Below, piece after piece: positions 45,089 to 61,828 of a stretch of 64,000 bases of DNA; position 1 is the first letter of the stretch, and the number at the start of each line of letters is the position of its first letter. Under the pieces are notes generated by a model. It ran no database searches. It was not told where the DNA came from and worked only from the letters and a program-made list of their open reading frames with translations. Made by a program: the position numbers and the translations under genes. The stretch comes from Akkermansia muciniphila (GTDB taxonomy: Bacteria; Verrucomicrobiota; Verrucomicrobiia; Verrucomicrobiales; V1-33). The stretch covers positions 49,271 to 113,270 of the forward strand of contig CALQSQ010000002.1 of the NCBI GenBank assembly GCA_943333275.1, written 5' to 3'.

Positions 45089-45107
45089 CACATCCACCCC
45101 TCCAAAA

Positions 45108-46205
45108 ATGCAGACCGACGATTACGAGCTTTCATTCCCAGCCTTGCGAGGTGTCCAGGCTGGTAAAGAGTATTACGTTGCGATGTGTCCAATCAACCTT
45201 GTTGTCGATCTGATCAAGATCAACGACGACGACGACGGGGTTCCAGCCGATCTCAGGGCCCAGCGCAGCATGAACAAGGCCCGGATTCCGGCGATTACCG
45301 ACTACATCCTCCAGAATCCGACCAGCTACGCGTTCTCCTCTCTCACGGTCTCAATCGACAGCAGCGTTGAGTTTTCCCCCTTTGGAACCGAGGGACTTGC
45401 CCGCCGGATGGGCATTTTGAAGGTTCCCTACGGAGTGACCTACCTGATCAATGATGGGCAGCATCGAAGGGCGGCGCTTGAGCAGGCCCTCAGAGAAAAG
45501 CCGGAACTCAGGAACGAAACGATCTCTCTGGTGATTTACATTGACCAAGGTCTCAAGCGTTCCCAGCAACTCTTTGCTGACCTGAACCGTTATGCGGTCC
45601 GGCCAACCACTTCGCTGAGCATACTTTACGACAATCGAGATCCTATGTCCCGCCTCATGCAGGACGTCGTGGATAACGTAATGATCTTCCGTGATTTGAC
45701 TGAGAAGACCAAAACAACCATTTCGAACCGTTCCCGGAAACTATTCACCCTCAGTGTCCTATATCAGGCAACCGCCGACCTTCTAAGAAAGAAGAAGGGA
45801 ACGGAACCAACCGCCAAGGACCAGCAGATTGCAGTGGCTTACTGGACCGAAGTGGGCAAGAACATCACGGAGTGGCAGCAAGCGGCGGACCGAAAAGTAG
45901 CGACATCGGACCTTAGGCGGGACTGTATCCACGCTCACGGAATTGCGCTACGCGCTCTTGGCAGACTTGGCGTGGACTTGCTGGCATCACATCCCAATGA
46001 TTGGAAGAAGAGGCTAAGCGGACTAAAGACGGTGGATTGGAGTCGACAAGGCTCAGGACTTTGGGAGGGGCGGGCGATGACCGGTGGCAAAATCAGCAAG
46101 GCTCACAACAATATTCTTCTCACAGCCAACGTGCTCAAAGGGGCGGTTGGGCTTCCTCTGAATCCGCAAGAAGAGGAAGTAGAGACTCAATTCAAACGTC
46201 GATAA
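45108..46205 (+). CDS. dndB: DNA sulfur modification protein DndB (DGQHR domain)
   Basis: The ATG at 45108 gives 365 residues; the track's 45072 start is TTG. The sequence opens YELSFPALRGVQAGKEYYVA and contains the signature LINDGQHRRAALEQAL at about residues 120-135. Other conserved parts are RSQQLFADLNRYAVRPTTSLS and a long helical C-terminus. In other bacteria DndB binds DNA, represses the dnd operon and shapes the level of phosphorothioation, and the DGQHR fold is ParB-like. It is the first gene of the operon, 27 bases before dndC. No strong ribosome-binding site is visible. Three repeated GGAAGTTT elements lie just upstream and are candidate operators. Confidence 0.93.
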   Translation: MQTDDYELSFPALRGVQAGKEYYVAMCPINLVVDLIKINDDDDGVPADLRAQRSMNKARIPAITDYILQNPTSYAFSSLTVSIDSSVEFSPFGTEGLARRMGILKVPYGVTYLINDGQHRRAALEQALREKPELRNETISLVIYIDQGLKRSQQLFADLNRYAVRPTTSLSILYDNRDPMSRLMQDVVDNVMIFRDLTEKTKTTISNRSRKLFTLSVLYQATADLLRKKKGTEPTAKDQQIAVAYWTEVGKNITEWQQAADRKVATSDLRRDCIHAHGIALRALGRLGVDLLASHPNDWKKRLSGLKTVDWSRQGSGLWEGRAMTGGKISKAHNNILLTANVLKGAVGLPLNPQEEEVETQFKRR

Positions 46206-46232
46206 GAACACAGAATCGGATTAAGAAATTTC

Positions 46233-47645
46233 ATGAACGAAGAACGCATTACAGGGGAGCGCATTCAGGCTCTATTACAAAAAATTCGCGAGGTATACCT
46301 CAGCGACGGTCGACCATGGGTAATCGGCTACAGTGGGGGCAAGGACTCATCTTGTGTGCTTCAGCTCACTTGGTATGCCCTAAGAGGCCTTCCGGAAGAG
46401 CAACGAACGAAACCTATTTACGTAATTACATCAGACACCCTGGTGGAAACACCAGCGGTGGTGAACCAGTTGGTCGAGACGCTGAAGCAAATTGGCGATA
46501 AAGCCACTGCTGAAAAAATGCCAATCAGTGTTCACAAGGTGATTCCAGCCATACGTGACACGTTCTGGGTGAACATGATTGGCCGAGGCCTTCCAGCGCC
46601 ATATACCAATTTTCGGTGGTGCACTGATAGGATGAAGATTGCCCCAACGACCACATTTATCAAAAGCAAGATCGCGGAATACGGAGAGGTGGTAATTCTT
46701 CTCGGTTCCCGGCGTTCGGAGAGTTCGTCTCGCGGACAGGTCATGGCCAATCGCCGCGATAAGGGCGCTTACCTTTCCTGGCACAACGACATCGCCAACG
46801 CGCTCGTCTTCACACCGATTGAGGACTGGCATACGAATGATGTTTGGGAGTATCTCATGGCGGTTCCGAGCCCTTGGGCCGGACGCAATGACGCGATCGT
46901 CACGATGTATCGTAACGCTCAAGCCGGTGAATGTCCGCTGGTTATCGACAAATCGACGCCATCCTGCGGTGGGGGACGTTTCGGGTGCTGGACCTGCACC
47001 GTTGTGCAAAAAGACCGCTCCATGGAAGCCATGATTGAGAATGGCGAAGATTGGATGCAGCCGATGCTGGATCTTCGCGACTGGTTGACCGAAACCCAGA
47101 TTCCGGAAAACAAGCCAAAGATCCGTGATCACCGCCGCCGCAATGGCCGCGTGGAGTATTTCGACGCCGGAGGAGAAAAGAGAATCGTGTGGGGACCCTA
47201 TAAATTGGAATTCCGAAAGGAGATTTTGCGGAGATTGCTCCGCACTCAAATGACAGTCAGAGAAACCGGCCCGGATCCGGAAGTGCATCTGATCCGCCCG
47301 GAGGAACTTCATAAAATCCGCCAACTTTGGCTTCACGATGAGGGAGATTGGGAAGACGAACTTCCGGCAATCTATGAGGAGGAAACCAAAGAAGTCATGG
47401 ATTGGTTGGTAGACGACCATGCCGGCGTGGGGGGTGTCGAGAAGCAGCTTCTTGAGGACGTGGCTAAAAAGTCTGATTTGCCTGCAAACCTCATTCGTGA
47501 GCTCCTTGATGTTGAAAGGAATCATGCAGGAATGAGCAGACGATCCGGGATCTACGACCAGATCGACAAGATCTTCAACAAGGACTGGCGTGATCTTGAG
47601 GATGCGCTTTCTGAAACAGTAAACCAACCCGGCATCGACTCATGA
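46233..47645 (+). CDS. dndC: DNA sulfur modification protein DndC (PAPS-reductase-like, Fe-S)
   Basis: This 470-residue protein belongs to the adenine-nucleotide alpha hydrolase/PAPS-reductase superfamily. The PP-loop is VIGYSGGKDSSCVLQL at about residue 30. Four cysteines expected to hold a 4Fe-4S cluster lie at GECPLVIDKS and SCGGGRFGCWTCTVV (about residues 230-255). RWCTDRMKIAP and LLGSRRSESSSRGQ are further conserved DndC segments. DndC is thought to activate the DNA backbone with ATP and use sulfur delivered by DndA to make the phosphorothioate. Its stop overlaps the dndD start by ATGA, implying translational coupling. Confidence 0.97.
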   Translation: MNEERITGERIQALLQKIREVYLSDGRPWVIGYSGGKDSSCVLQLTWYALRGLPEEQRTKPIYVITSDTLVETPAVVNQLVETLKQIGDKATAEKMPISVHKVIPAIRDTFWVNMIGRGLPAPYTNFRWCTDRMKIAPTTTFIKSKIAEYGEVVILLGSRRSESSSRGQVMANRRDKGAYLSWHNDIANALVFTPIEDWHTNDVWEYLMAVPSPWAGRNDAIVTMYRNAQAGECPLVIDKSTPSCGGGRFGCWTCTVVQKDRSMEAMIENGEDWMQPMLDLRDWLTETQIPENKPKIRDHRRRNGRVEYFDAGGEKRIVWGPYKLEFRKEILRRLLRTQMTVRETGPDPEVHLIRPEELHKIRQLWLHDEGDWEDELPAIYEEETKEVMDWLVDDHAGVGGVEKQLLEDVAKKSDLPANLIRELLDVERNHAGMSRRSGIYDQIDKIFNKDWRDLEDALSETVNQPGIDS

Positions 47646-49651
47646 TTTTCACCAAAATTGTCCTGGAGAACTACGGGCTCTTCTCCGGCCGAAACGAGTT
47701 CGACTTGCAGCCACGCGAGAAACGGGGGAAGGTTCGGCCTGTCGTTTTGTTCGGAGGAAAGAACGGAGCTGGGAAAACCACCTTCCTTGGTGCCATCCGC
47801 CTTCTATTTTACGGACGTCGTTCTCTTGGGGATCGCCTGAGCCAGAAGGATTATGACGAGGCCCTGGTCGCAAGAACTCACCGGAACAAGACCACTCAGA
47901 ATCGCGGATCCTATGGCAAAGTTGGCGTTGAGTTCGATTTTGTTCAGCAAGGAGAAAAAAACAGCTTCTATGTGGAACGGTCATGGACGATTTCAAGTTC
48001 AGGGACTGTGACTGAGTTCTTCCGCGTCGATAAAGAAGGAAAGCCATTTGATGAGATCAGCGCAACTCATTGGGAAGCATTCGTCGGGGATATCGTGCCC
48101 GAGAGGCTTTCACAGCTATTCTTTTTCGACGGAGAAAAGATCAAGTCGATTGCGGAAGACGCCTCCAGCAACGAAGCGATCTCGGAGGCTATCCAATCGC
48201 TCCTGGGGCTCGATGCAGTGCTTGCACTCAAGAGCGATCTTGCAGTTTATCGCTCAAAATTGCTCAAGAGCGAAGATCCAGCAGCCTATGAACGCGAGCT
48301 TCAGGAAATTACTAGAGAGCTCTCGTCATTCAGGACCCAGCTCGACTCGATTGACGAAGAAATTTCCAGCGTGAAAACACAGATAGATGGCGTCACTTGT
48401 TCGATTACAAACTTGGACTCACAGCTGCAGCAACGAGGTGGATCACTTGCGGAAAAGCGTTCTGAGAATCAGTTTCGATTTGAGCAGACCAAGGAATTGA
48501 TCACTCTTAAGGAACAGGGTATCCGCGAAGCATGCGAAGGCGCCGCTCCATTCGTGATGTGCCCGGGCATTGTATCGCTCCTTCAAAGTCAGCTTCATGC
48601 GGAGTCCGAAGGGCGTAGCCAGGCCGTGAGAGCCCGGACCGTCCAAGATGTGCGGGATCATCTCCTGCAAGCCAGTCAAGGGGAAGGTCGCCAGCAAACC
48701 TCAATCCGATCCTTCATTGATCAGCAACTCGATGAGTTTTTCCAGACGTCCATAGGCAATAAACCAGTCCGGACAATCCACGGCCTGTCCGAGAGGGCCT
48801 CCGTGCTCATGGAGGAAATTGTGAGTTCGGCTGGTCCCGATCAAGCTTCCCAGTTGGCGCAACTCTTTCTTGAACTGGAGGATGCCCACCAAACACTCAA
48901 GACGCTACAGCGCGATTTGAGCCACACTCCCGATCAGCGAGACCTTGCTGACCTTGTTACCTCCCTCAATGCATCCCACCAGCGGATGGGCAACTTGAAG
49001 CAGCAGGAACAGAAGCTCAATGAAGACCGGCGGCAAGTGGACATGAAGGTTGCCCAAGCTGAGCGCAACAAGGACCGGATTGAAGACAAACGCGCCACCG
49101 CCTCGAAGCAGCGTCTCAAGCTGGCACAGCTCCAAAAGCTCGGACCAGCCCTTGAGGAATACCGCCGCCGCCTAGCCCAAGCCAAAATTGAAACGCTTCA
49201 AAGTGAGGTGACTCAATGCTTCAACAAGCTTGCCAGGAAGGATGACTTCGTTCGTCGAATCGAGGTTGATTCATCCTCCTTTGCCGTCACCCTCTTTGAT
49301 CAACAGGGTAGATCCATCCCCAAAGAGGAATTGTCTTCTGGAGAGAAGCAAATCTTCGCAATCGCACTCCTCTGGGGCCTTGGCAGAACATCCGGAAGGC
49401 CACTACCAGTTGTCATCGACACTCCGCTTGGACGCCTTGATTCCGATCACAGGGCGAAGCTTATCGAGCACTACTTTCCCAATGCCGGGCATCAGGTGAT
49501 TCTTTTGTCCACCGATACCGAAGTGGATCAGCCGCTTTTCAAGCAACTTAGCCCCGCAGTTTCACATTGTTACCACCTCGAATATGACCAAAAAGAAGGC
49601 CGCACCAACGCCACGGAAGACTACTTCTGGCGCCCCAAGCAACTTGCTTGA
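47642..49651 (+). CDS. dndD: DNA sulfur modification protein DndD (SMC-like ATPase)
   Basis: This 669-residue protein has SMC/Rad50-like architecture. The Walker A motif is FGGKNGAGKTTFLGAIRLLF at about residues 37-56, and LFFFDGEKIKSIAED is the following conserved loop. Long coiled-coil stretches lie at about 210-270 and 420-510. The ABC-type signature LSSGEKQIFAIALLWGLG is followed by the Walker B VVIDTPLGRLDSDHR near residue 597. In other systems DndD hydrolyses ATP and acts on DNA with DndC and DndE during sulfur insertion. It overlaps dndC by 4 bases and dndE by 68 bases. No premature stop is seen. Confidence 0.97.
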   Translation: MIFTKIVLENYGLFSGRNEFDLQPREKRGKVRPVVLFGGKNGAGKTTFLGAIRLLFYGRRSLGDRLSQKDYDEALVARTHRNKTTQNRGSYGKVGVEFDFVQQGEKNSFYVERSWTISSSGTVTEFFRVDKEGKPFDEISATHWEAFVGDIVPERLSQLFFFDGEKIKSIAEDASSNEAISEAIQSLLGLDAVLALKSDLAVYRSKLLKSEDPAAYERELQEITRELSSFRTQLDSIDEEISSVKTQIDGVTCSITNLDSQLQQRGGSLAEKRSENQFRFEQTKELITLKEQGIREACEGAAPFVMCPGIVSLLQSQLHAESEGRSQAVRARTVQDVRDHLLQASQGEGRQQTSIRSFIDQQLDEFFQTSIGNKPVRTIHGLSERASVLMEEIVSSAGPDQASQLAQLFLELEDAHQTLKTLQRDLSHTPDQRDLADLVTSLNASHQRMGNLKQQEQKLNEDRRQVDMKVAQAERNKDRIEDKRATASKQRLKLAQLQKLGPALEEYRRRLAQAKIETLQSEVTQCFNKLARKDDFVRRIEVDSSSFAVTLFDQQGRSIPKEELSSGEKQIFAIALLWGLGRTSGRPLPVVIDTPLGRLDSDHRAKLIEHYFPNAGHQVILLSTDTEVDQPLFKQLSPAVSHCYHLEYDQKEGRTNATEDYFWRPKQLA

Positions 49652-50039
49652 TCTTACCCTACAGCGCATCCCCTTCGCGGAGTCCATCGACGCGAAAATG
49701 AGAACGTTGAGAGGACGCACGGGTATTACTCCGAACATCCTTGCTCGATTCGGCTTCTGCCTGTCACTCGAGGAACAAGGCTCTCCTCAGGATCCCTTCG
49801 AATCTGAAGGTGTGGGAAGGGAGATCAATCGCAATACTCTGCTTGGAGACAACGATTCGGTCTATATAGCCCTTCTGCGAACCTGGGTGGCCAAGAACGA
49901 CCTCATCGAAACCTGCACGCAGAAGCAGTTCAATGAGTTTCTCGTAGCGCACATGAACCGCGGCTTCGAATTGATCAGTTCGAGAATCCGTGGTCTTCCG
50001 GATCTTGCGTCACTTGTCGGTCGCGAATTCAAATCCTGA
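49584..50039 (+). CDS. dndE: DNA sulfur modification protein DndE
   Basis: This 151-residue protein is the size of DndE or slightly longer. The family core is at RIPFAESIDAKMRTLRGRTG and NILARFGFCLSLEEQG, followed by FLVAHMNRGFELISSRIRGL near the C-terminus. DndE from other bacteria forms tetramers that bind nicked DNA and help DndCD. The first 25 residues (KKKAAPTPRKTTSGAP) are basic and lie within the dndD overlap, so a shorter internal start is possible but no better codon is visible. The gene ends 5 bases before dndA. Confidence 0.92.
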   Translation: MTKKKAAPTPRKTTSGAPSNLLDLTLQRIPFAESIDAKMRTLRGRTGITPNILARFGFCLSLEEQGSPQDPFESEGVGREINRNTLLGDNDSVYIALLRTWVAKNDLIETCTQKQFNEFLVAHMNRGFELISSRIRGLPDLASLVGREFKS

Positions 50040-50044
50040 CAGCC

Positions 50045-51214
50045 ATGGATCAGTCGAAACGCCCCATTTACCTAGACTACCAGGCAACGACACCCGTCGA
50101 TCCCAGGGTCGTGGAAGCGATGCTCCCTTACTTTACGGAACACTTCGGGAATCCTGCTTCAAACAGCCACATCTATGGGAACGAGGCTTTGGCAGCAGTG
50201 GAGAAGTCCCGGGAGATTCTTGCGAAGTCCATTCAGGCAAAGTCACAAGAGATCACCTTTACGTCAGGAGCCACTGAGGCAATCAATCTTGCCATCAAGG
50301 GTGTAGCGATCGCCAACGAAAAAAAAGGCAGGCATTTCATCACTGCCGCAACCGAGCACAAAGCGGTTCTCGATTGTTTTGCATGGCTTGAAAGAAACGG
50401 CTACGAAACGACCATCCTGCCAGTAGACTCAGGTGGTTTGATTTCGATCGATGATCTGAAGTCCGCAATCCGACCAGACACGGTTATGATTTCAATCATG
50501 GCCGCGAATAACGAAATCGGAGTTCTTCAGCCGATTGAGGAAATCGGAGGCATCTGCCGTGAGGCCGGAGTCTACTTCATGACGGATGCCACCCAGGCTC
50601 TCGGAAAGATCCCAATCAATGTTCAATCGCAGAACATCGACTTGCTGGCTGCTTCGGCTCATAAAATCTATGGACCTAAAGGCATAGGAATGCTTTATGT
50701 GCGACGCAGCAACCCGAAGGTCCAACTGGTAGCTCAAATCGATGGTGGAGGTCATGAGCGGGGCCTGAGGTCGGGAACTCTACCCACTCCTCAAATCGTT
50801 GGATTCGCGAAAGCCGTTGAGTTGGCGAATATGGAATACAAGGAGGAGACGAGACGCCTCATGAATCTTCGTAATAAGCTTGAAGCTCAGATTCAGAACC
50901 TAATCCCCAGCGCAATTTTGAATGGAAATCGCGAAAGACGCCTTCCAAATAATTTGAATTTCTCATTTCCTGGGGTGGAGGCAGAGGCATTAATCGCCTC
51001 GCTCGTTGGTAAACTCGCTATTTCTTCTGGGTCTGCGTGCACGTCCGCAGAAATTAAGCCGTCGCACGTATTGGAAGGAATTGGCTGTAGCGTTTCGAGA
51101 GCAAGATCATCTGTGCGCATAGGGATCGGTCGCTTCACCACTGAGGAAGAAATTGACCAAGCCACAGATGCTTTGAGAAATGAGTTTCAACGCCTTTTAA
51201 CATTCTCAGCTTAG
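50045..51214 (+). CDS. dndA: Cysteine desulfurase DndA (IscS/NifS-like)
   Basis: This 389-residue fold-type-I PLP enzyme removes sulfur from cysteine and supplies it to DndC. It opens RPIYLDYQATTPVDPRVVEA. The PLP-binding lysine is in LAASAHKIYGPKGIGML (about residues 203-219) and the catalytic cysteine is in SSGSACTSAEIKPSHVL (about residues 325-341). The GSACTS sequence is the NifS/IscS active-site loop. It is the last gene of the operon, where it more often sits divergently in classic dnd clusters. It converges with the Mrr gene 59 bases away. Confidence 0.95.
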   Translation: MDQSKRPIYLDYQATTPVDPRVVEAMLPYFTEHFGNPASNSHIYGNEALAAVEKSREILAKSIQAKSQEITFTSGATEAINLAIKGVAIANEKKGRHFITAATEHKAVLDCFAWLERNGYETTILPVDSGGLISIDDLKSAIRPDTVMISIMAANNEIGVLQPIEEIGGICREAGVYFMTDATQALGKIPINVQSQNIDLLAASAHKIYGPKGIGMLYVRRSNPKVQLVAQIDGGGHERGLRSGTLPTPQIVGFAKAVELANMEYKEETRRLMNLRNKLEAQIQNLIPSAILNGNRERRLPNNLNFSFPGVEAEALIASLVGKLAISSGSACTSAEIKPSHVLEGIGCSVSRARSSVRIGIGRFTTEEEIDQATDALRNEFQRLLTFSA

Positions 51215-51272: not shown

Positions 51273-52112
51273 CTATTCATCCGCAAAATAGTCACTATCG
51301 ATTCTATACGTTGAGTAGGACTTTAAAGTGGAAACGCCTACACCGTGTGTAATCATTAGATCACACAACCTATCCCCGTTGATTAAAACAATACTCTTTT
51401 GTTGTTTTTCAGCATAATCAATAGCTGTATTCGCAAATGAAGACGTCGTAATAAATACTCCCTTTTGAACATTTTCCATGGCCCCGACAAACTGTTGAAC
51501 ATCTGGGCGCCCAACCTTCTTTTCGGCGTACCTCTTAGCCTGAATATATATTTTACCTAAGCCTAACTCGTCTTCCTTAATTATCCCATCGATCCCGAAA
51601 TCCCCTGAGGATTCAGTCACTCGTCCTGCATCCTTGATGCTGCCACCGTAACCCATGGCAAGTAGTAGATCTACAACCAAGCGCTCAAAAAACGCTGGCG
51701 GAGAAGCGAGTATTTGATCTAGCAACATCGTCTTTACGGAAGATCGATGCTCCAAGTATGAATCAAATAACTTCTCCTCAGGTATCTTATCGTCGCTTGT
51801 CTCCTCTGATTGAACAGTATTTTTTGCTTCTAGAGTTGATTGGTGTGGCTCGAGTATCTTGTATAGCGTTCCATTCTTATTCTTGCTGTGGATGGCAAAA
51901 TGTTTTATCGGGCTGGCTGACGGGAAGTCTAGTCCATAGCAATGCTTCCTGATCTTATTATTTACTAGTCCATCAGGCGTCTTTGCTCCAAAAGTATACA
52001 GGCCACGGGCAATTATTTCGTTGTATATTTTTTTCGAAGTAAGGGGCGTGCCAGCGGTTGCGAGCACCTCTTTTATAGCCCCAACTATTGTCATGGAGTT
52101 TTTTGTATTCAT
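51273..52112 (-). CDS. HARE-HTH/Mrr-family restriction endonuclease
   Basis: This 279-residue protein has two parts. The N-terminal 90 residues are a HARE-HTH winged helix (VGAIKEVLATAGTPLTSKKI, then IIARGLYTFGAKTPDGLVNN). After a charged linker comes an Mrr-type nuclease domain (about 140-279): FERLVVDLLLAMGYGG, then SSGDFGIDGII and KIYIQAKRYAEKKVG, which give the D...QxK catalytic pattern. VFITTSSFANTAIDYAEKQQ is the usual later segment. HARE domains are predicted readers of modified DNA or chromatin-like states and Mrr nucleases cut modified DNA, so a role in recognising phosphorothioate or its absence is plausible. It is the last gene of the RelA-DGQHR-HNH-Mrr operon and abuts the HNH stop. 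The codon use is AT-richer than the dnd genes. Confidence 0.9.
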   Translation of the reverse strand: MNTKNSMTIVGAIKEVLATAGTPLTSKKIYNEIIARGLYTFGAKTPDGLVNNKIRKHCYGLDFPSASPIKHFAIHSKNKNGTLYKILEPHQSTLEAKNTVQSEETSDDKIPEEKLFDSYLEHRSSVKTMLLDQILASPPAFFERLVVDLLLAMGYGGSIKDAGRVTESSGDFGIDGIIKEDELGLGKIYIQAKRYAEKKVGRPDVQQFVGAMENVQKGVFITTSSFANTAIDYAEKQQKSIVLINGDRLCDLMITHGVGVSTLKSYSTYRIDSDYFADE

Positions 52113-52607
52113 CTAGAGGTCGGGATATACATCAAAAGCTAAAGATCTGCACTTTTCGATCTGAAAGTCCAGCCATGGCTTAAACCATCGATCTTCATTT
52201 TTCCACGGCAAAATGTGAATGTCATTGGATTTTGCAAGATTGTGAAGCTTGCAAAGAAAGACACGATTGAGTTGCAAAGTGGGCCCCCCCATAGAATATG
52301 GAAATAGATGGTCTTGTTGAATTTCTTCATCAAGATGACATTTATAACCCCACAATTCCTCACACTCGCAGTATGTTTGCAATCCGGATGAGGACGAAAA
52401 TGCGCGAGGGCCTTGAATTGCCTCTTGCAACTTGTTTCGTGATATTCCGATCGGCAATGCGAGTTCTTCGAGGTGTTCAGGGTGTAAAAGAGCGAGACGC
52501 TTATAAAGATCGTTGCCAACACCGGAATAGCTTTTACGCCAGCCGTGTCTCAAAGAGGCATGCAAGGCCTGTAGAAAGCGCGAACCATCCAGAAATTGGT
52601 GCATCAC
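52113..52607 (-). CDS. HNH-type endonuclease
   Basis: This 164-residue protein has an N-terminal helical domain, followed by an HNH-like core. CEELWGYKCHLDEEIQQDHL opens the fold, LFPYSMGGPTLQLNRVFL follows, and LCKLHNLAKSND closes it. The DH...N...H pattern fits the metal-dependent ββα nuclease, and the cysteines may bind a structural zinc as in ScoMcrA-like HNH enzymes. It overlaps the start of the DGQHR gene's stop by 4 bases and abuts the Mrr gene, so it is translated with both. It could be the cleavage partner of the Mrr protein or of the DGQHR protein. Confidence 0.8.
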   Translation of the reverse strand: MMHQFLDGSRFLQALHASLRHGWRKSYSGVGNDLYKRLALLHPEHLEELALPIGISRNKLQEAIQGPRAFSSSSGLQTYCECEELWGYKCHLDEEIQQDHLFPYSMGGPTLQLNRVFLCKLHNLAKSNDIHILPWKNEDRWFKPWLDFQIEKCRSLAFDVYPDL

Positions 52608-54217
52608 TTCCAGTTGCTTAGTGAAACAGTGATACTCTCCTCATTGCCGCCGTAGACAATTATCTTCAGAGTAAGAATGAGCGGGTCTTGACTGGCCTTG
52701 TTGGGGTACACTTTTGGGGGAAGAAGATACTCCCCACTGGACTTGAATCGAATCGGATCGGCTGCACTGCTCTTTGCATCAAAGATCTCTAGATGTCTTG
52801 CGTTAGTCGATCTGCTTTTGACGCGGAAATATTTTCTTCCTGCCATCGGTATCGTTTTCTTTGTTCCCCTCATCAGGGTCTCATCGTGAATTCCCTTTTT
52901 AATCGCTTTCTTATTCCCATTCAAATGCTTGAATTCCATAACAACTTCGAGCTGATCTCCCGAAAGGTAATCCCAGATATTTGATACACCTGCTGGCAGT
53001 GCCTGATTCTGGAAGGAATATTCAAAGACATCTTTCGCTAATGTCTTTGATTTCTCGACCCATCGAGTCGAAGAAATGACGTGCTGTTGGAAATTCCAGT
53101 CGGTTTGACCAAAGTTAAGTTTATTGAATAGACTTTTCCAATCAGCTGAGGTTGGATTAGCATTACACTCTCTAAGGAATGTCAAAGCGCCACAGACGTA
53201 AGCATCGATCATTATTTTGTGGCAGAATTCTCTTTTGCCAAAGAATACCGACTTATCAGGTGCGCTCTGGACAGTTTGCTTCAAAATTTCGAATGAGTCG
53301 GAAAGTTGAGATGCGAGTTCTCTAGGTTCTATGTGTCCTTGTGATGCATTTAAACCATAATATGATTCATTTATAATGCTTTCGAGATCTGCGCAGTCAT
53401 ATTGGTGGCCTAAAAATTTAGGTTTTGAATCAAGCTTGTCGTTAAACTTTATGTCGTCGTGAAAGCCATTTTGGTTTCCCGTGAGGTGATTAGTTGGGGA
53501 TTTGCATAGATATGCAACGGCTTCCATAGAGCGATGATGCCCTCCATTTTTTTTGTATTTATCCAGTTCAAAGGCGAAAGTCAGCCACTCCTTATGCAGT
53601 GGGTCTAGCGGGGTGGCTTCCGTGGTGACTTGAGCAAATATTTTTGCTAGATTTCTGCCTGTATAAAATGTTCCAGAATTGTTGAGCAATAGAACGACCG
53701 GGATCAGATTGTCGCGTTGTTTGCAGAGAGAATCACCCAGGCCAGTGATGCGGTGCTGCCCATCGATAATCCACAGCGGTGGGGATTGACCACTTTGTGG
53801 GACTGGGAGATCGATAACTTTCATGGGGGTCGTGTATCCTCCTGGGGCCTGATAGGGTGATATTGTAATGCCAGTTGGTCCTCCTATGCATCGCTCAGCA
53901 ACTAGGACGGGATTAGGCATGAATTCCCCTGTATCATTGAACGTGTCGGTAATACGTTTGCTATTTTGGGGAATTAGTGGTCTTTGCCACTGCTTTACTG
54001 GCGGCGTCAAAACGTTAGTTGCAATGTCGTAGTTTGCCGTTTTTGTAGAAAAGTTTGGCACTTCGGCGATACTAAGAAGGTCTCCTGCCTTCAGAAATCC
54101 AACATATAGTGGGTATGTTGATGTGCCTGATTTGATGTAGTTTTCGAGAGCGTAGAGTTGCATCGGATTTATCTTATTGAGTATATCGTTATTAGAAGAA
54201 CTGAGGATGAGTGACAC
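52604..54217 (-). CDS. DGQHR-domain protein (DndB-like), alarmone-operon paralogue
   Basis: This 537-residue protein carries the signature LWIIDGQHRITGLGDSL at about residues 148-164, which marks the DGQHR family. The N-terminal 100 residues include a DndB-like segment (PLYVGFLKAGDLLSIAEVP). Its C-terminal half is unlike DndB and has a beta-rich end (DPLILTLKIIVYGGNEESIT). The protein is longer than DndB (365 aa), which suggests an added domain. It overlaps the RelA/SpoT-like gene by 26 bases and the HNH gene by 4 bases, so it sits in the middle of a tight operon. It probably senses DNA or its modification, but this is inference. Confidence 0.88.
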   Translation of the reverse strand: MSLILSSSNNDILNKINPMQLYALENYIKSGTSTYPLYVGFLKAGDLLSIAEVPNFSTKTANYDIATNVLTPPVKQWQRPLIPQNSKRITDTFNDTGEFMPNPVLVAERCIGGPTGITISPYQAPGGYTTPMKVIDLPVPQSGQSPPLWIIDGQHRITGLGDSLCKQRDNLIPVVLLLNNSGTFYTGRNLAKIFAQVTTEATPLDPLHKEWLTFAFELDKYKKNGGHHRSMEAVAYLCKSPTNHLTGNQNGFHDDIKFNDKLDSKPKFLGHQYDCADLESIINESYYGLNASQGHIEPRELASQLSDSFEILKQTVQSAPDKSVFFGKREFCHKIMIDAYVCGALTFLRECNANPTSADWKSLFNKLNFGQTDWNFQQHVISSTRWVEKSKTLAKDVFEYSFQNQALPAGVSNIWDYLSGDQLEVVMEFKHLNGNKKAIKKGIHDETLMRGTKKTIPMAGRKYFRVKSRSTNARHLEIFDAKSSAADPIRFKSSGEYLLPPKVYPNKASQDPLILTLKIIVYGGNEESITVSLSNWK

Positions 54218-55118
54218 GAAGGCCTGCGGGTGTAGCGGCGTTCAGGACGAGAACGTCAAACCGAGTCTCGTCGACCATGCGAGAGAATGTGGAGTATTCC
54301 CTGAGTGCTTGTTCCCGCTCGGATTCTTTGAATTTGAATTCATGGAGAAGCTGTGCTCGCGTTCGGTCGTAAACGAGAAGGAATGATCCGGGAAGATTTT
54401 CCTCGGATTCCCACTTCGTGGCCTGCATGAACCGCTCAGTAAGAGTCGGTAGAATCGAGGTGAATGGGGAACGCTTCGAAACCAGAATTTGTGGCATCGC
54501 TTGCGAATCTGGCAAAGGCTCCCCGATCTCGATAGCTTCCACTCCATCGCGAATGTAGCCTAGGTAGCTAGAGACGTCCTCTGACGGTTTCCCTTCCTTG
54601 GTTTGTTCGCCGAAAGACTCCGATTCAATCGCCCAAAGATGCTGGGCCAGCGTGCGGAGTTGAATTTCCAAAAGCTGGCTTCCGTGACGAATGTTCAGGT
54701 GGACACATCGGTATCCGGAAGGTGGCGGATTTTTCCGGTAGTCATGAATATCCCGAAGATCCAGTTCTTTGATCAGGAGCTCCAACATTCGTTCCTGGGC
54801 AGCTACATTCTCGACCAAGAGGCGCAGGCCCACGATGTCCGCCACGCGGGACAGATCCATTCCGCGGTTCTGAACCCGCTTGAGTTTCCGGATGATCGAT
54901 TTAGTCCGCTTCGATCGGCCCGTGAGCAGGGACGGAATCTTTGTCGCCGCCAGTATCGCTTCCAGCTTCAGGGACATGTCGATCAGCAAGGGATCGAATG
55001 CGGCTCTATAGTCCTCCAGCTGGCGAATCAAGTCGTCGGAAATAGGCCCATCGCGGAGGGCCTTACCGAGTCGCTTGATCTGATTTCCTGAAAATTCCAT
55101 TTCTGAAGAAAATTTCAT
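54192..55118 (-). CDS. RelA/SpoT-domain nucleotidyltransferase-like protein
   Basis: This 308-residue protein contains a RelA/SpoT (ppGpp synthetase-like) domain at about residues 70-185. Recognisable parts are MDLSRVADIVGLRLLVENVA (metal-binding aspartate and GxR), PPPSGYRCVHLNIRHGSQ (GYR.H loop) and LLEIQLRTLAQHLWAIESES (ExQxRTxxxxxWA). The order and spacing match small alarmone synthetases. The C-terminal 120 residues are a different domain with mixed alpha and beta structure. The start could be the ATG at 55118 or the one at 55100; both follow similar CTTCAGAAATG text. It could make an alarmone or a modified nucleotide on activation and thereby stop growth of an infected cell. The stop overlaps the DGQHR gene. 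Confidence 0.87.
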   Translation of the reverse strand: MKFSSEMEFSGNQIKRLGKALRDGPISDDLIRQLEDYRAAFDPLLIDMSLKLEAILAATKIPSLLTGRSKRTKSIIRKLKRVQNRGMDLSRVADIVGLRLLVENVAAQERMLELLIKELDLRDIHDYRKNPPPSGYRCVHLNIRHGSQLLEIQLRTLAQHLWAIESESFGEQTKEGKPSEDVSSYLGYIRDGVEAIEIGEPLPDSQAMPQILVSKRSPFTSILPTLTERFMQATKWESEENLPGSFLLVYDRTRAQLLHEFKFKESEREQALREYSTFSRMVDETRFDVLVLNAATPAGLRVTHPQFF

Positions 55119-55407: not shown

Positions 55408-57111
55408 TTATGGGAGAATTCCAACGACCGTCGGCTGGGAAGAAATTCGCCCAGAGGCAGTCATCCATTCACCTGTGTCCCGGTTGATCATTCGGGTATT
55501 CTTCCACCGCCGAGCAAGCTCCTCCTCCTGGTCTTCCGGAGTTCCCGCAATCAGATGATTCATGAGACGGTGTGCCCAAGATGCGTTACGTGTGAGAATC
55601 CTTCCACCGTCGACTGAGTAGGTTACGCCATACCAGGGGGAGCTTGGACGGTGGGCTTCGAACTTTCGGGCTTCGTCGAGCTCCTTTAATTTGCGAAAAA
55701 CTCCTTGCATGGAGCGGCCCCTTCCCCCGTCTTCTGGTAAGGTGATCATTGATGCCACGGAGTTCGCCAGAATTTCCTGTCCAAGTGGTCTCAGAAGGAG
55801 ATGGCCCCGGTTTTGCAGGGAATTGTCGAGCAGTTCACCCCGTTGGTTGACTTTGAAAAAATCCCGCCACTGGCTCAGTTCCCGACGAAAGTCATAGGCC
55901 GTATACTGCCGAAGTTCCCGAAAAATTGGCAGTCCGCTCACGGAGTTGAAGTATTCTACGGCCAAGGCTTCGGCTTCTTCGATTGCGGATTCCGACGGAC
56001 GGACCGCCACAGCACCGCGAATCTGGGGTTCCCAATGCCTGACCAGATGCTTGGCCGCGGCATGGAGGTAGGTGCGGACCACCGCCCTGATGGACTGAAG
56101 TGTGGTGAGATAGTGGTTCCCAACGGCAGGAATGCTCGTCCGTTTGAAGTCCACCAGAGAGGTGCCGTCGCGGAGTTTAAAAAGCCGGTGGGAGACGGCG
56201 ATTCGGCGTGCGACAATCGAAAACCCATCGTTTTCGTCGAGCAGGATGTTCTCACCCTTATCGGTTCGCTTGGCGTAGGAATTGATGGCGATAAAGACCG
56301 CACGCACCCGCCGATTCGCCTCGGCCCTGGTCTCACCCCGAACGACGGCGGGGATGTATTCAACCACGAGGGAATCATTCAGGACCGCTTGGAGACGCGG
56401 AATGTCCGTGTCGAATTCCTCCTGAAACTGCTCTTTGGTGATGGTGGTTCCCTTGGCCTGGCCATCTCTATTACGCATCTGCAGGAATCCCATGTCCCGA
56501 ACCTCCCGGATGCCACGGATTCCCAAGACACGGTGTTGGCCATCCAGCGCGAAAACCCTGGTGTCATCGAGATGGAGTCGCCCGACTCGGCCCTGCGGCT
56601 CGAGGGGAGCAAACTCAGTAGCGTTGACTTTCGCCCGTCCTTCGGCATCCCAGTTTTCGTGGTTGGGCTCGTCGATCCAAGCAGGGCTGACCACTGCAAT
56701 GATCGGACCGAATTTGCGCTCTGGGCGGGCCAAATAGGCTGCCAGGGCGGGCTGCCTTGTCCAATCCGGAGCCCGTTGCTTCACTTCGTCGGCGATGTTT
56801 TCATCGACTTTCAGGCGGCCGGTTTCCGGGTCGATATGCCCCTGCATGAACGGCATTTCAGACCCGAGCTTCACGTGCTGCCCGATCCATTCCAAGGAAT
56901 GTGTTACCACATACGAAGGAACCGCAACGGAACCATCCGACTGACTCGTACTTCCCATCTGACTCGAGAGAGCAACGAAGCTGCCAAGCTCTTCAACAAC
57001 ATTACTGAGCAGGCTCTCCAGAGCGTTACCCTCTCGTTGGCCCTGCATCCGCAAGATGCTTTCGATTTCGTCAAGATCCTTAATGGTGACTTTCTGTTGG
57101 TTCATAGCCAT
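55408..57111 (-). CDS. DGQHR-domain protein (DndB-like), tandem paralogue A
   Basis: The ATG at 57111 (MAMNQQKVTIKDL) gives 567 residues; the track's 57234 start lies inside the upstream gene. The signature ALDGQHRVLGIRGIREVRDM lies near residue 205. Other shared segments with its tandem copy are SEMPFMQGHIDPETG, QRAPDWTRQPALAAYLARPE, and INSYAKRTDKGENILLDEND. The C-terminus (GRISSQPTVVGILP) is unique. The two copies match along their whole length, so this is a duplicated pair. DGQHR proteins resemble ParB-type DNA-binding or nucleotide-using proteins. It is 73 bases after the other copy's stop. Confidence 0.9.
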   Translation of the reverse strand: MAMNQQKVTIKDLDEIESILRMQGQREGNALESLLSNVVEELGSFVALSSQMGSTSQSDGSVAVPSYVVTHSLEWIGQHVKLGSEMPFMQGHIDPETGRLKVDENIADEVKQRAPDWTRQPALAAYLARPERKFGPIIAVVSPAWIDEPNHENWDAEGRAKVNATEFAPLEPQGRVGRLHLDDTRVFALDGQHRVLGIRGIREVRDMGFLQMRNRDGQAKGTTITKEQFQEEFDTDIPRLQAVLNDSLVVEYIPAVVRGETRAEANRRVRAVFIAINSYAKRTDKGENILLDENDGFSIVARRIAVSHRLFKLRDGTSLVDFKRTSIPAVGNHYLTTLQSIRAVVRTYLHAAAKHLVRHWEPQIRGAVAVRPSESAIEEAEALAVEYFNSVSGLPIFRELRQYTAYDFRRELSQWRDFFKVNQRGELLDNSLQNRGHLLLRPLGQEILANSVASMITLPEDGGRGRSMQGVFRKLKELDEARKFEAHRPSSPWYGVTYSVDGGRILTRNASWAHRLMNHLIAGTPEDQEEELARRWKNTRMINRDTGEWMTASGRISSQPTVVGILP

Positions 57112-57184
57112 ACAATCGGTGCAAGCAACCAAAAATCGCCCGCTTCCTCCAAAGTTGGAGAAAGCGGACGGCGAGGTTTTAAAG

Positions 57185-58870
57185 TTAAACGGGGTTGGGA
57201 AGCTCGATCTTTCCTTCATCGAACGGCCTCGCATCGCCGCCGTCGATCGGACGCCATGTTTTTCGGTTTCGATCTACCATGCGGGCCGTTGCGAAGTCTA
57301 CCCAGAGTTGGGAGAGGGCAGGTTCTTCCATCCCAGCGACGAGATAGACCAGTAAGTCATGCGCGAGCCCGCGCGATGAGGTGCTTGTGATCATTTTCTG
57401 ATCCATCGGATCGTAGGTTACCCCGAACCAAGCGTTCTCAGGCTGGTGTGCTTCGAACTTACCCTCTGAATCCAGCTTCGAGATTTTAACAAAAACCGCT
57501 TCAAGAGTCATTCCACGCCCCCCAAGGTTTCGTGGTTTGATGAGAGTCCCTACAGCTTCAGCAAGAATAAGCTGGCCAACCGGGCGGAGCAGCAAGTGCC
57601 CACGGTTATCAGGTTCATTTTCGCTTGGAAATTCCCTCCAGCGAGTAACAGCCTCCGCCCTGCGGTTCAAATCTCCTTTTTCCAGAACTTGAAACAGGGG
57701 GAGCATGTGCAGGTGAGACAGAAAATCGAAAAATTCGTCCTTCGCGACAGCTAGATCATCCTCACTTGGACGAATCGGCATCTGGCCGCTGAATTCGGTG
57801 TCCCAGTCCTTCGCTCTAACGGGATTGACCGCCGACAGATAGCCTTTTGCCATGTCCTTGATCGTCTGAAGTGTGGTATACCATTCGGTTCGTTGCTTCG
57901 GAATGGACGTAGTCTTCCAATTCACGCGATTATTTTTGTCGCTCGCGTTGAAAAGCTCATGGAAGATGCCGGCTTTCCTCGCGACGATTGCGTAGCCATC
58001 GGTCTCATCGAGAAGAATATTTTCACCCTTGTCTGTCTTCTTCGCGTATGAATTGATCGAGATGAAGGTGTTGCGGATTCGTCGTGAAGCTTCGGATCTG
58101 GATTCACCGGCAATCACCGCCGGAAGATACTCAACAATCATCGTCTCGTTGAGAAGTGACTGTAGCTCCTCCAAACTGAGATGGAAGCGATCCAGGAATT
58201 CCTCACGTGAGTAGGCTCGGTTTTTCTCCTTGCCGCTTTTATCCTTCATGACCAACCCGCGCGGCCCGTTTCTAACATCCCTAATACCCTGAATGCCAAT
58301 GACTCGATGCTGTCCGTCCAGTGCATAAACCTTGATTCCGTCAAGCTTGAGGAGTCCGATACGTCCTTCGAGATCGAGGGCAGAATATTCGGTCGCGCTT
58401 TTCAACGCACGGCCGTCCCTACTCCAATTTTCGTGCCTTGGATCATCCACCCAGTCCGGACTGACGACGGCAATGATGGGGCCGAATTTCCGCTGGGATT
58501 GCGCCAGATAAGCTGCCAAGGCAGGTTGACGACTCCAGTCCGGGGCGCGCTGCTTTACTTCCTCGGCATTTTCCTGGTCGATGATCAGTTTTCCGGCGGC
58601 ATCAATCTTGGTTTCCATGAAGGGCATCTGGGAGCCTAGTTTGATATTGTCTGCGATCCATTCGAGGGAGTGTGTTGCCGCAAAGGAAGGGACCAGTTTA
58701 GGGCTTCCGGATTCCGTCAACACTTTTCCCATCGCGCTAGCATGGACGAGGACGTAGCCTTTCTTATCGGTAGCCTCTTGTAAAAGCTGCGCCAGAATGA
58801 CTTTCTTGCGTTGATCTGCTTCCTGTTGCTCCCGCACAAGGCGGTCGAGTTCTGAATCGTTGGTGCTCAT
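57185..58870 (-). CDS. DGQHR-domain protein (DndB-like), tandem paralogue B
   Basis: This 561-residue protein carries YALDGQHRVIGIQGIRDVRN at about residues 184-203, and its homologous segments match paralogue A (SQMPFMETKIDAAGK, QRAPDWSRQPALAAYLAQSQ, INSYAKKTDKGENILLDETD). The N-terminus (DRLVREQQEADQRKKVILAQ) differs from A and is a helical extension. The start is 6 bases before the GIY-YIG stop, so the two genes are close and likely cotranscribed. The paralogues may form a heteromer or have diverged in target recognition, and neither has a clear nuclease motif. Confidence 0.9.
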   Translation of the reverse strand: MSTNDSELDRLVREQQEADQRKKVILAQLLQEATDKKGYVLVHASAMGKVLTESGSPKLVPSFAATHSLEWIADNIKLGSQMPFMETKIDAAGKLIIDQENAEEVKQRAPDWSRQPALAAYLAQSQRKFGPIIAVVSPDWVDDPRHENWSRDGRALKSATEYSALDLEGRIGLLKLDGIKVYALDGQHRVIGIQGIRDVRNGPRGLVMKDKSGKEKNRAYSREEFLDRFHLSLEELQSLLNETMIVEYLPAVIAGESRSEASRRIRNTFISINSYAKKTDKGENILLDETDGYAIVARKAGIFHELFNASDKNNRVNWKTTSIPKQRTEWYTTLQTIKDMAKGYLSAVNPVRAKDWDTEFSGQMPIRPSEDDLAVAKDEFFDFLSHLHMLPLFQVLEKGDLNRRAEAVTRWREFPSENEPDNRGHLLLRPVGQLILAEAVGTLIKPRNLGGRGMTLEAVFVKISKLDSEGKFEAHQPENAWFGVTYDPMDQKMITSTSSRGLAHDLLVYLVAGMEEPALSQLWVDFATARMVDRNRKTWRPIDGGDARPFDEGKIELPNPV

Positions 58871-59236: not shown

Positions 59237-59343
59237 GAGCGGAGAATACACGATAAATCCATACGATGTCAACAACTTTTTTCTAGTTGGAGCAACAAAT
59301 TTGTAAAATCAGGATTTAGAGCCGTTGTTTTCCGTTTTATCTT

Positions 59344-59577
59344 TCAAATGAGCGAATATCGCCGTCCGTGCAATGCTCGGAAGACTTTGTCTGGGCGACT
59401 TCCGTCGGTCTCCACTCCAAGACAATGGCGGCGAATTGCCTTATTGACGACGCTTCCCGGGTATTTTGTTGGCAGGGGATGAAGTCCTCTCGCCCTAATT
59501 ATCGTCGCAATTTCATTTGATTGCATGGGGCGCCCCTCCGATTTGAGCACCTCGATCACGGCTTCACGAATTGTCAT
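59344..59577 (-). CDS. Stand-alone HARE-HTH winged-helix protein
   Basis: This 77-residue protein is a single HARE-HTH domain. Its IREAVIEVLKSEGRPMQSNE, then IARARGLHP-like (IIRARGLHPLPTKYPGS) and VVNKAIRRHCLGVETDGSRP segments line up closely with the N-terminus of the Mrr protein (EVLATAGTPLTS..., ARGLYTFGAKTP, VNNKIRKHCYGLDFPSASP). It therefore shares a direct ancestor with the Mrr reader domain. It may guide the GIY-YIG nuclease or DGQHR proteins, or act as a regulator. The 220-base gap to the methyltransferase gene upstream could carry a promoter. Confidence 0.85.
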   Translation of the reverse strand: MTIREAVIEVLKSEGRPMQSNEIATIIRARGLHPLPTKYPGSVVNKAIRRHCLGVETDGSRPDKVFRALHGRRYSLI

Positions 59578-59797: not shown

Positions 59798-61828
59798 TCA
59801 CGCTGGAGGCAACTTCTTTTTTGGCATGAGGGATTCGGTCAAGCCATACCGGGAGCGGAGTTCCGCCAGGATCTCCGGAGCGAGGCCGTAGCCGGCGGAT
59901 TCTGGGGTGATATTCAAGCGGCGCAGGCGGTGGGAGAGCCGGTCGCAGGCGAGGCGCTCCGGATGATCCGGGCCGAGGAACCGCTCCTTGAAGCAGAGGA
60001 GTTGCTGGTAGGGAGGCTGGCGGTGATCGAAGACATCGGCGGACTGACGGCGAAGGTTGACCTTGATGCGCCAGAGCATGAGCGGAAACGGATTCTCAAA
60101 AAAGCTGTCGTAATACTGGAAGGTGACCTTGCCGGAGTGTTTGTGGATTTTGATGATGTCAGCTTCGTCTGGGTCTCCGTAGACGCGGGCGGCACAGAGA
60201 ACATAAATTCGAAGGATGGCAGGAAGCTCCGGCAGCAGGCTGCGGTGGATCTGGAGGGAATCGTCATCCGGGCAGCCGTGGGCAAAGGCTTCGCAGGATG
60301 ATTCGATATTACGCGAATCTCCGGCGGCGAAGAGCAATTCGCGTGCAGAGGCAAGCGAGGCCTCATAAGTGCCAAAGAAGGTTTTGATGTCGGCCTGAAG
60401 TCGATCGCTCATGTATTTAAGCGGAACCTTTTTCCGGAAATTGGCCAGAGCCAGGTAAGCCAGCAGGTCATCCCGTCGCTGTATGCGCGCAGCTTCCAGG
60501 GTGGTTTCCCCGTAGCGAGAGATAAAGATTTGATGAACTTTGCGCGGGGTGCCGACAACGACGCGGAGTTCCTCGAGCCTGGGGAATTCCGCAGCGGTGG
60601 GGAAACGGCCGCGATCCAGCATAACCTGCCAGCATGCGTCCAACAGTTCCTTGTTGGTCTCGTAGAGGTCCACGGCCTGGCGTTGGAGCCGTGGGCGGAG
60701 GAATCCGAGTCGGCGACTGAGGTTTTCCCAATCGATGACCCGGCGCGTGCGGCGGGCCATCCAATCCTGTGCCTCGCGTGGATCCCGAAAGATGGCGTAG
60801 ATTCCCAGACCGACAGGAAAGGCTTCTGCGTCCAGCGCATGTTCGATGAGGGCCTGAAGTTCTGCTGGCTCGAAATATTTCTGAAAGGTTCCCCGGCTTG
60901 TCAGGTAACCGTCGGCATGAGGGCGGATGGTAGTATATTCCTCCTGGCCATGCACCATGGTGGAGACCAGCAAGGCTCCTTCGGCGAGTTTCCAAGCTGC
61001 CTGCAAGACGCTAACTCGCTCGGCGGGCTTTTCGATGACATTGAGGACGAATCCGAGATTCACGAACCGAGCCGAGCGTTTGGTTTCGGAGGGAAAATGG
61101 GCTGGGTCCCATCCTGAGGCACTAAGGCCCAGTGCATTAAGGCCGACCACATCGGATCCCAATCCACAGCCGTAGTCAAAGAAGGTATCGGATTCGCGAA
61201 GCAGGCCTAATTCCAGAGCGACACGAACAGGCTTGGACAGCTCATTGCGCACGAGGGCCGTGCGGTGGCGGTGGATGGCGGGAGTTTCAGGCTCATCCTG
61301 GTCTTGGATTTGTTCCCCAAGCTCGGTTAAACTGTGCCCTCGGATTTGGAATCCTTTTTCCCGAAGCAGTTGTTCCCAATTCTCCCGAAATCCGATGGTG
61401 GATGTTTCCTGGTAGAGACCAGCAGCGACCTCTGCTTTGGTCAGACGCGAGAAGAGGGAGCGTTTGGGATGTTCCGGTGGCAGAAAGGTTTCTTTGCGGT
61501 GAAGTATCGGGGGATTCGAGTGCGTTGAGAAATCCGTGCGCTTCACCACCCCGGTGGCCAGATTCACCCGCACGGATTCGGCCAGAGCTGGATGTGCGAT
61601 TGAAAGAAAATCCGGGTAGCGCAGGAAGGAGATGGCGAAGTCTGCCGTCGAAAACTTGAGGATGTTAAAAGCGGCAGAGAGTCCAAGCCGTTGGAGGAGT
61701 TTTCCCACAAAGTTTGCAAGTCCTTGGGGCAGGGTGGACTCGTCCGGAGCAAAAACATAGATGGCCGTGGGCAAGCGTTTGCCAAAGGGAAGGTCGGCCA
61801 CGGCCTGTTGATATTCCGCCAGATTCAT
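59798..61828 (-). CDS. DNA phosphorothioation-associated putative methyltransferase
   Basis: This 676-residue protein matches in size and layout a family I recall as a Dnd-linked putative methyltransferase. The N-terminus (AEYQQAVADLPFGKRLPTAI) and the block FNILKFSTADFAISFLRYPD are typical. The SAM-binding motif is DTFFDYGCGLGSDVVGLNAL at about residue 218, with GASGWDP-type following region (LSASGWDPAHFP). The C-terminal 300 residues are helical and rich in conserved Trp and Arg and likely contact DNA or other subunits. It is the first gene (from the right) of the minus-strand set. The substrate is unknown; DNA near phosphorothioate sites is an inference. Confidence 0.85.
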   Translation of the reverse strand: MNLAEYQQAVADLPFGKRLPTAIYVFAPDESTLPQGLANFVGKLLQRLGLSAAFNILKFSTADFAISFLRYPDFLSIAHPALAESVRVNLATGVVKRTDFSTHSNPPILHRKETFLPPEHPKRSLFSRLTKAEVAAGLYQETSTIGFRENWEQLLREKGFQIRGHSLTELGEQIQDQDEPETPAIHRHRTALVRNELSKPVRVALELGLLRESDTFFDYGCGLGSDVVGLNALGLSASGWDPAHFPSETKRSARFVNLGFVLNVIEKPAERVSVLQAAWKLAEGALLVSTMVHGQEEYTTIRPHADGYLTSRGTFQKYFEPAELQALIEHALDAEAFPVGLGIYAIFRDPREAQDWMARRTRRVIDWENLSRRLGFLRPRLQRQAVDLYETNKELLDACWQVMLDRGRFPTAAEFPRLEELRVVVGTPRKVHQIFISRYGETTLEAARIQRRDDLLAYLALANFRKKVPLKYMSDRLQADIKTFFGTYEASLASARELLFAAGDSRNIESSCEAFAHGCPDDDSLQIHRSLLPELPAILRIYVLCAARVYGDPDEADIIKIHKHSGKVTFQYYDSFFENPFPLMLWRIKVNLRRQSADVFDHRQPPYQQLLCFKERFLGPDHPERLACDRLSHRLRRLNITPESAGYGLAPEILAELRSRYGLTESLMPKKKLPPA

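What the first reader, a model, noticed from the sequence alone, without database searches (positions are those of the whole stretch)
51273..55118. Candidate new module: RelA/SpoT-like enzyme + DGQHR + HNH + HARE-Mrr operon
Four genes overlap or abut (26-base overlap, 4-base overlap, 0-base junction), so they act together. A small alarmone-synthetase-like protein beside a DndB-like sensor and two nucleases, next to a phosphorothioation system, is a combination I have not seen described. A logical model is sensing of unmodified or phage DNA by DGQHR/HARE, cleavage by HNH/Mrr, and growth arrest by the RelA-like product.
Basis: partly seen in the sequence, partly recalled or inferred. Interest (0 to 1): 0.88.

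Follow-up and report, generated by a model that had tools for sequence, protein, structure and literature searches.

The report
Divergent CapRel-type toxin beside phosphorothioation genes
The "RelA-like" gene is really a distant relative of CapRel, a phage-triggered suicide toxin that blocks translation, and the three nuclease-type genes behind it look like a separately acquired cassette, so the four-gene "module" is probably two defence pieces stacked in one island rather than one new pathway.

Summary
The four ORFs are real, at the stated coordinates and spacings. The reading changes. The 308-aa "RelA-like" protein is a full-length homologue of the fused toxin-antitoxin CapRel (PADLOC PDC-S33, E=2e-38; best whole-length structural hits 7ztb/9erv). 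It has the nucleotide-binding residues (R68, R99, Y136). Its YXXY autoinhibition motif reads HPQF and the family's C-terminal tail is absent. Genome and order lack housekeeping Rel, so a stringent-response role is unlikely. CapRel and the DGQHR-HNH-HARE-Mrr trio differ sharply in codon usage (GC3 0.60 vs 0.44; RSCU correlation -0.06, versus 0.57 between CapRel and dnd genes), with the break at the gene junction. The trio looks separately acquired, so overlap is not proof of one pathway. The four-gene order was not found elsewhere (80 best RelA-like loci from 84,980 species; P0002 in about 1,100 genomes). A related pattern recurred: CapRel-like genes abut restriction genes in 7 of about 65 loci (hsdM-hsdS-CapRel-hsdR; hsdR-CapRel-Mrr; EcoRI methylase-DGQQR/HNH nuclease-CapRel), versus about 3% of random genes nearby. 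Best reading: an abortive-infection toxSAS layered with modification/restriction, a new variant of a known kind. Molecular coupling to DGQHR/HNH/Mrr is unproven.

The parts
54192..55118 (-). Divergent fused CapRel-type toxSAS (toxSYNTH about 1-200, C-terminal pseudo-zinc-finger-like domain about 240-308); HPQF in place of YXXY, no C-terminal tail
52604..54217 (-). DGQHR-domain protein (537 aa), orphan-like; low-GC block
52113..52607 (-). Small HNH-type protein (164 aa), 4-base overlap with the DGQHR gene
51273..52112 (-). HARE-HTH + Mrr_cat nuclease (type IV-like), catalytic D...QAK intact
45072..51214 (+). dnd phosphorothioation genes: DndB, DndC, DndD, DndE, DndA
55408..58870 (-). Two DGQHR/DndB-like paralogues (608 and 561 aa, 44% identical), same codon usage as dnd and CapRel genes
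59344..59577 (-). Stand-alone HARE-HTH protein, 42% identical to the HARE part of the Mrr nuclease
59798..61828 (-). DNA phosphorothioation-associated putative methyltransferase (TIGR04096)

Best explanation
The region is a layered defence island of two compositionally different pieces. Piece one, of the same make-up as the dnd genes and the two DndB-like DGQHR paralogues, includes a divergent fused CapRel-type toxSAS. By homology it is held inactive by its own C-terminal domain, is triggered by a phage product, and then pyrophosphorylates tRNA 3'-CCA ends to stop translation (abortive infection). Piece two is a low-GC DGQHR-HNH-HARE-Mrr cassette, most likely a modification-sensing (GmrSD/SspE-like plus Mrr-like) restriction unit, joined directly behind the CapRel gene and probably co-transcribed with it. 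Shown here: genes, homologies, catalytic residues, compositional break, lack of other RelA/SpoT proteins, recurrence of CapRel genes next to restriction genes elsewhere. Inferred: chemistry, trigger, restriction role of the trio, co-transcription.
For: Toxin identity: PADLOC PDC-S33 over residues 5-308, E=2.3e-38. The plasmid homologue L055, aligned over residues 5-308, is CapRelSJ46 itself. Foldseek of the AlphaFold model (pLDDT 80) gives 9erv and 7ztb as the top three chains over 337-345 columns, against about 190 for small alarmone synthetases. CapRel R79/R116/Y155 correspond to R68/R99/Y136. No other PF04607 and no HD_4 hydrolase in the genome; only 3 of 54 genomes of the order (own included) have any PF04607, in line with the reported absence of RSH in Verrucomicrobia (PMC3153485). 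Two blocks: GC3 0.60 for CapRel, 0.58 dnd, 0.61 DGQHR2/3 versus 0.44 for the trio; RSCU correlation of CapRel 0.57-0.58 with dnd and DGQHR2/3, -0.06 with the trio; change point 14 codons before the CapRel stop. CapRel lacks the tail that its fused relatives carry, at the same junction. Recurrent association: CapRel-like genes abut restriction genes in 7 loci of several phyla, 10 of 30 close neighbours, against about 3 of 100 random non-adjacent genes of the same loci.
Against: P0001 is very divergent (about 25% identity; branch length 2.33), so its chemistry cannot be read from homology alone. Its neutralising motif is HPQF and the C-terminal helix is missing, so autoinhibition as in CapRelSJ46 may not hold. 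Composition can differ between genes that work together. The HARE domain of the Mrr nuclease is 42% identical to a stand-alone HARE protein of the dnd-associated set, a link between trio and island.
Confidence: 0.6

Rival explanations
1. One reading: one module in which DGQHR/HARE sense unmodified or phage DNA, HNH/Mrr cut it, and the RelA-like product arrests growth.
For: Tight overlaps and one direction. L115, the best-scoring relative, also pairs a CapRel gene with a DGQQR-HNH nuclease, and L106 pairs one with an Mrr nuclease.
Against: Order not found elsewhere; codon usage splits at the junction; CapRel carries its own sensor-like domain.
Confidence: 0.15
2. Guard system, PrrC-like: the toxSAS is held off by restriction/modification proteins (here perhaps the DGQHR protein, since HPQF and the missing tail weaken self-inhibition) and fires when phage anti-restriction factors disable them.
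For: Recurrent hsdS-CapRel-hsdR embedding with 4-base overlaps. Loss of YXXY goes with loss of pZFD neutralisation in AT2faRel (PMC11782079). A toxin-antitoxin pair inside a type I system is known for DarTG2 (PMC12255303).
Against: No physical or functional evidence. The trio looks newer than the toxin. CapRelSJ46 needs no partner.
Confidence: 0.12
3. The CapRel gene is a decaying remnant: its 3' end was lost when the trio was joined to it, leaving an inactive or uninhibited but silent product.
For: Protein stops right after HPQFF while fused relatives carry about 15 residues or more beyond this point; the compositional break is at the same place.
Against: Otherwise intact ORF with all catalytic residues. 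The H of HPQF is shared with other members (THQRYF in L038, THSHYF in L029/L037/L040), so it is not simply decay.
Confidence: 0.13

Closest known systems
CapRelSJ46 (fused toxSAS toxin-antitoxin, PDB 7ztb/9erv)
   Same: Same domain order and length range; conserved toxSYNTH residues; top full-length structural match
   Different: About 25% identity; YXXY replaced by HPQF; C-terminal tail absent; chromosomal dnd island of a phylum without Rel rather than a phage-plasmid
PADLOC PDC-S33 (phage defence candidate)
   Same: P0001 matches the model over almost its whole length
   Different: A stand-alone candidate family; the dnd neighbourhood and the trio are not part of it
FaRel2/ATfaRel2 and the split pair in L038
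   Same: toxSYNTH controlled by a pZFD-type domain; L038 has THQRYF, close to THPQFF
   Different: Toxin and antitoxin are separate ORFs; in the window they are fused
DarTG2 embedded in a type I R-M operon (PMC12255303); PrrC in type I systems
   Same: Toxin gene placed inside or beside restriction-modification genes
   Different: Other toxin chemistry; here phosphorothioation genes and a DGQHR-HNH-Mrr cassette
GmrSD / SspE (DUF262 DGQQR + HNH)
   Same: ParB-like DGQ[Q/H]R protein plus HNH nuclease; SspE senses phosphorothioate
   Different: Here two separate ORFs, DGQHR not DGQQR, GmrSD_N score below cut-off (0.03)
Dnd phosphorothioation system
   Same: DndBCDEA present next door, with DGQHR and TIGR04096 accessory genes
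   Different: A dnd-type restriction arm was not shown; the window ends at the contig end

Membership tests
CapRel-type fused toxSAS | RelA_SpoT (toxSYNTH) domain with adenine-coordinating arginines and G-loop tyrosine | tested here: met
   R68, R99, Y136 align with CapRel R79, R116, Y155; PF04607 above cut-off
CapRel-type fused toxSAS | C-terminal pseudo-zinc-finger antitoxin domain in the same chain | tested here: met
   PDC-S33 match through residue 308; predicted strands/helices 244-303 and full-length Foldseek match to CapRel; domain orientation not resolved (rmsd about 12)
CapRel-type fused toxSAS | YXXY neutralisation motif | tested here: not met
   H304-P-Q-F307; nearest row has THQRYF
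CapRel-type fused toxSAS | C-terminal helical extension (anchor) | tested here: not met
   Protein ends at F308, directly after the motif; fused relatives carry about 15 residues or more; not recovered in the other frame
CapRel-type fused toxSAS | tRNA pyrophosphorylation and phage-triggered activation | not testable with these tools
   needs biochemistry; hence filed only as a CapRel-like variant, not as a CapRel proper
Housekeeping RelA/SpoT (RSH) | HD hydrolase, TGS and ACT domains | tested here: not met
   Only PF04607 found in the protein; no HD_4 in the genome
GmrSD/SspE-type nuclease (for P0002+P0003) | GmrSD_N (DUF262) domain plus HNH | tested here: inconclusive
   GmrSD_N 0.03, below cut-off; DGQHR TIGR03187 2e-8; HNH weak with conserved residues
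Mrr-type modification-dependent nuclease (P0004) | Mrr_cat domain with PD-(D/E)xK-type active site | tested here: met
   PF04471 3e-34, PDLC03657 2e-54, D...QAK present
Conserved four-gene module | Same gene order in other genomes | tested here: not met

The most novel reading that the evidence does not exclude
A toxSAS that has lost cis-autoinhibition (HPQF, no anchor helix) and is now held in check in trans by a DGQHR protein that reads the phosphorothioate/restriction state of DNA, so that failure of modification or restriction triggers tRNA pyrophosphorylation: a PrrC-like guard built from a CapRel toxin. The same logic would hold for the hsdS-CapRel-hsdR operons.
Probability: 0.1. Interest if true: 0.85.

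Novelty: new variant of a known kind. Interest (0 to 1): 0.48.

Why it matters
It moves the gene from 'alarmone signalling' to translation-blocking abortive infection. It places a CapRel-type toxin in an order that largely lacks Rel enzymes, where no HD_4 hydrolase was found in this genome either, so how such damage would be reversed is open. It also shows that CapRel-type genes recurrently sit inside restriction operons of unrelated bacteria, which makes a testable question of whether they guard those systems. It is equally a warning that gene overlap alone does not make a module.

Tried and rejected
(1) Frameshift idea: the +1 frame after the CapRel stop (SSSNNDILNKIN) resembles the missing tail, but adding it raised the profile score by only 2.6 bits and 190 of 1000 random tails did as well or better; rejected. 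(2) HPQF as simple decay: weakened, because the H is shared by other members. (3) Relatives of P0002: none in plasmids, phages, viral contigs, 388 Verrucomicrobiota-phylum genomes (own genome excepted), 36 genomes with RelA-like relatives, 297 Bacteroidota; 399 Pseudomonadota gave one weak hit with six stops, ignored. (4) P0003 in plasmids: none. (5) AlphaFold of P0002 alone: pLDDT 34, not used. (6) Promoter/terminator scan: no more than shuffles. (7) Repeats bounding the trio as insertion marks: only short chance-like matches. (8) DptF (TIGR03238) in own genome: none, but the control was also silent, so nothing follows. (9) First alignment too diverse for the genome scan. (10) Profile comparison of P0002 with the two DGQHR paralogues: only the 16 residues around DGQHR align.

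Full report
Observation. The four minus-strand ORFs exist at 55118-54192, 54217-52604, 52607-52113 and 52112-51273, with overlaps of 26 and 4 bases and a 0-base junction. The first overlap depends on a GTG start; an ATG 18 codons on would leave a 28-base gap. Domain calls: RelA_SpoT, HARE and Mrr_cat above cut-off; DGQHR below its trusted cut-off but with the exact motif; HNH weak but with conserved residues. Next to them lie dndB, C, D, E, A on the plus strand, and on the minus strand two DndB-like DGQHR paralogues, a HARE protein and the dnd-associated methyltransferase. The window ends at a contig end (one search gives the window as C2 up to 113270; one search gives C2 as 113270 bases).

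What the RelA-like protein is. It matches PADLOC PDC-S33 over residues 5-308 (E=2.3e-38). The E. coli plasmid homologue aligned over residues 5-308 (25.5%) is CapRelSJ46, by its match to PDB 7ztb. An AlphaFold model built with 33 rows (pLDDT 80) finds 9erv and 7ztb as the best PDB matches over 337-345 columns, while small alarmone synthetases match only about 190 columns. The global TM-score is moderate (0.53) and the rmsd large, as expected if the two domains are oriented differently. CapRel R79, R116 and Y155 are conserved as R68, R99 and Y136; Zhang et al. (PMC9712102) describe these as the adenine-coordinating arginines and the G-loop tyrosine. CapRel's YXXY motif, which plugs the ATP site, is H304-PQ-F307 here, and the protein stops at F308, whereas fused relatives go on for about 15 residues or more. 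The nearest row in a 71-row tree is L038, from another genome of the phylum, though both are long branches and the join may be false. L038 has a 254-aa toxSYNTH and a separate 89-aa ORF ending in THQRYFSDLTEILKSAG plus 11 more residues, near a DNA methylase. The H in the motif is therefore a feature shared with other members; the missing tail is peculiar to the window gene.

No stringent response to serve. The genome has no other PF04607 and no HD_4 hydrolase; both searches rang in E. coli, B. subtilis and other controls. Only 3 of 54 genomes of the order have any PF04607, the window's own included. This agrees with the published absence of RSH from Verrucomicrobia (PMC3153485). That the host belongs to that phylum is shown by the locus L081, a record titled Opitutia bacterium, which is the same locus as L034 of a same-class genome. 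A toxSAS role fits better than alarmone signalling; the chemistry itself is inferred.

One module or two pieces. GC3 is 0.60 in the CapRel gene, 0.58 in dnd and 0.61 in the DGQHR paralogues, but 0.43-0.44 in DGQHR, HNH and Mrr. RSCU of the CapRel gene correlates 0.57-0.58 with dnd, DGQHR paralogues and methyltransferase and -0.06 with the trio; none of 20,000 permutations reached the GC3 difference; the best change point lies 14 codons before the CapRel stop. The simplest reading is that the trio was joined behind the CapRel gene later, possibly taking its tail. An alternative, that the tail survives in the other frame, was tested and dropped. Against a full separation of trio and island, the HARE part of the Mrr nuclease is 42% identical to the stand-alone HARE protein at 59344-59577.

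Is the order found elsewhere? None has a DGQHR-family neighbour by comparison with the window proteins; the single motif hit (L082) sits in a frame with no other sign of being such a protein. Relatives are at most about 36% identical. P0002 itself was not found outside the genome in about 1,100 genomes, plasmids, phages or viral contigs, apart from one stop-ridden weak hit. So the order is unique as far as searched; sensitivity for so divergent a protein is limited.

A recurring neighbourhood. Looking at what does lie next to CapRel-like genes gave a broader pattern. In L059 (Planctomycetota) CapRel overlaps hsdS and hsdR by 4 bases each; L077 (Clostridiales) is the same with overlaps of 17 and 4; L031 (same phylum as the window) has hsdM-hsdS-X-CapRel-hsdR; L112 hsdS-CapRel; L132 CapRel-hsdR; L106 hsdR-CapRel-Mrr; L115 EcoRI-type methylase, GmrSD_N(DGQQR)-HNH nuclease, CapRel. 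That is 10 of the 30 close same-strand neighbours of at least 100 aa. Among 100 random non-adjacent genes of the same loci, PADLOC type I methyltransferase models hit 2, one of them very likely the hsdM of L059 itself (it is in the sample), and one sampled gene (L082) is an hsdR. L115 is the best-scoring relative and carries the same domain pair as the window (DGQ[Q/H]R + HNH); the window HNH hits the last part of the same PADLOC model as the L115 nuclease. Toxin genes inside type I operons are already known (DarTG2, PMC12255303); I found no paper in the held library describing CapRel there, but the library is open-access only, and that PDC candidates were partly found by such embedding is my recollection, not checked here.

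Mechanism. Best reading: dnd marks self DNA; the DGQHR-HNH-Mrr cassette is probably a modification-sensing nuclease unit (SspE couples DGQQR GTPase, phosphorothioate reading and nicking, PMC13251355); the CapRel-type protein is an abortive-infection toxin. Whether the layers talk to each other is open. The loss of YXXY and tail leaves room for control in trans, which I rate at about one in ten.

Verdict. Observation confirmed; interpretation partly supported; a new variant of a known kind. The unity of the module is the weakest part of the claim, the identity of the toxin and its restriction-operon habit the strongest.

Noticed in passing
L059:4994-12172, L077:6818-12238, L031:2673-11702, L112:6727-9002, L132:117-4196, L106:4593-10012, L115:5567-9050: CapRel-like genes embedded in or abutting restriction-modification genes in unrelated bacteria.
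   Followed up: yes
L038:7262-8319 (minus): toxSYNTH and pZFD-like antitoxin in two adjacent ORFs in a genome of the same phylum, near a DNA methylase and an AAA ATPase-like gene.
   Followed up: partly
window 55090-55125: Two tandem 18-bp copies spanning the start of the CapRel-like gene, giving two candidate ATG starts; a GAAGGAA-T-TTCCTTC inverted repeat lies just upstream.
   Followed up: no
window 59344-59577: Stand-alone 77-aa HARE-HTH protein, 42% identical to the HARE part of the HARE-Mrr nuclease.
   Followed up: partly
window 59027-59275: Short GIY-YIG-like peptide (GIYGI...EILYVGKAFNLRRR) followed in another frame by 58876-59094; possibly a frameshifted gene. Pfam gives no match.
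   Followed up: no
window 55408-58870: Two adjacent DGQHR/DndB-like paralogues (44% identical) not found in 357 other genomes of the phylum.
   Followed up: partly
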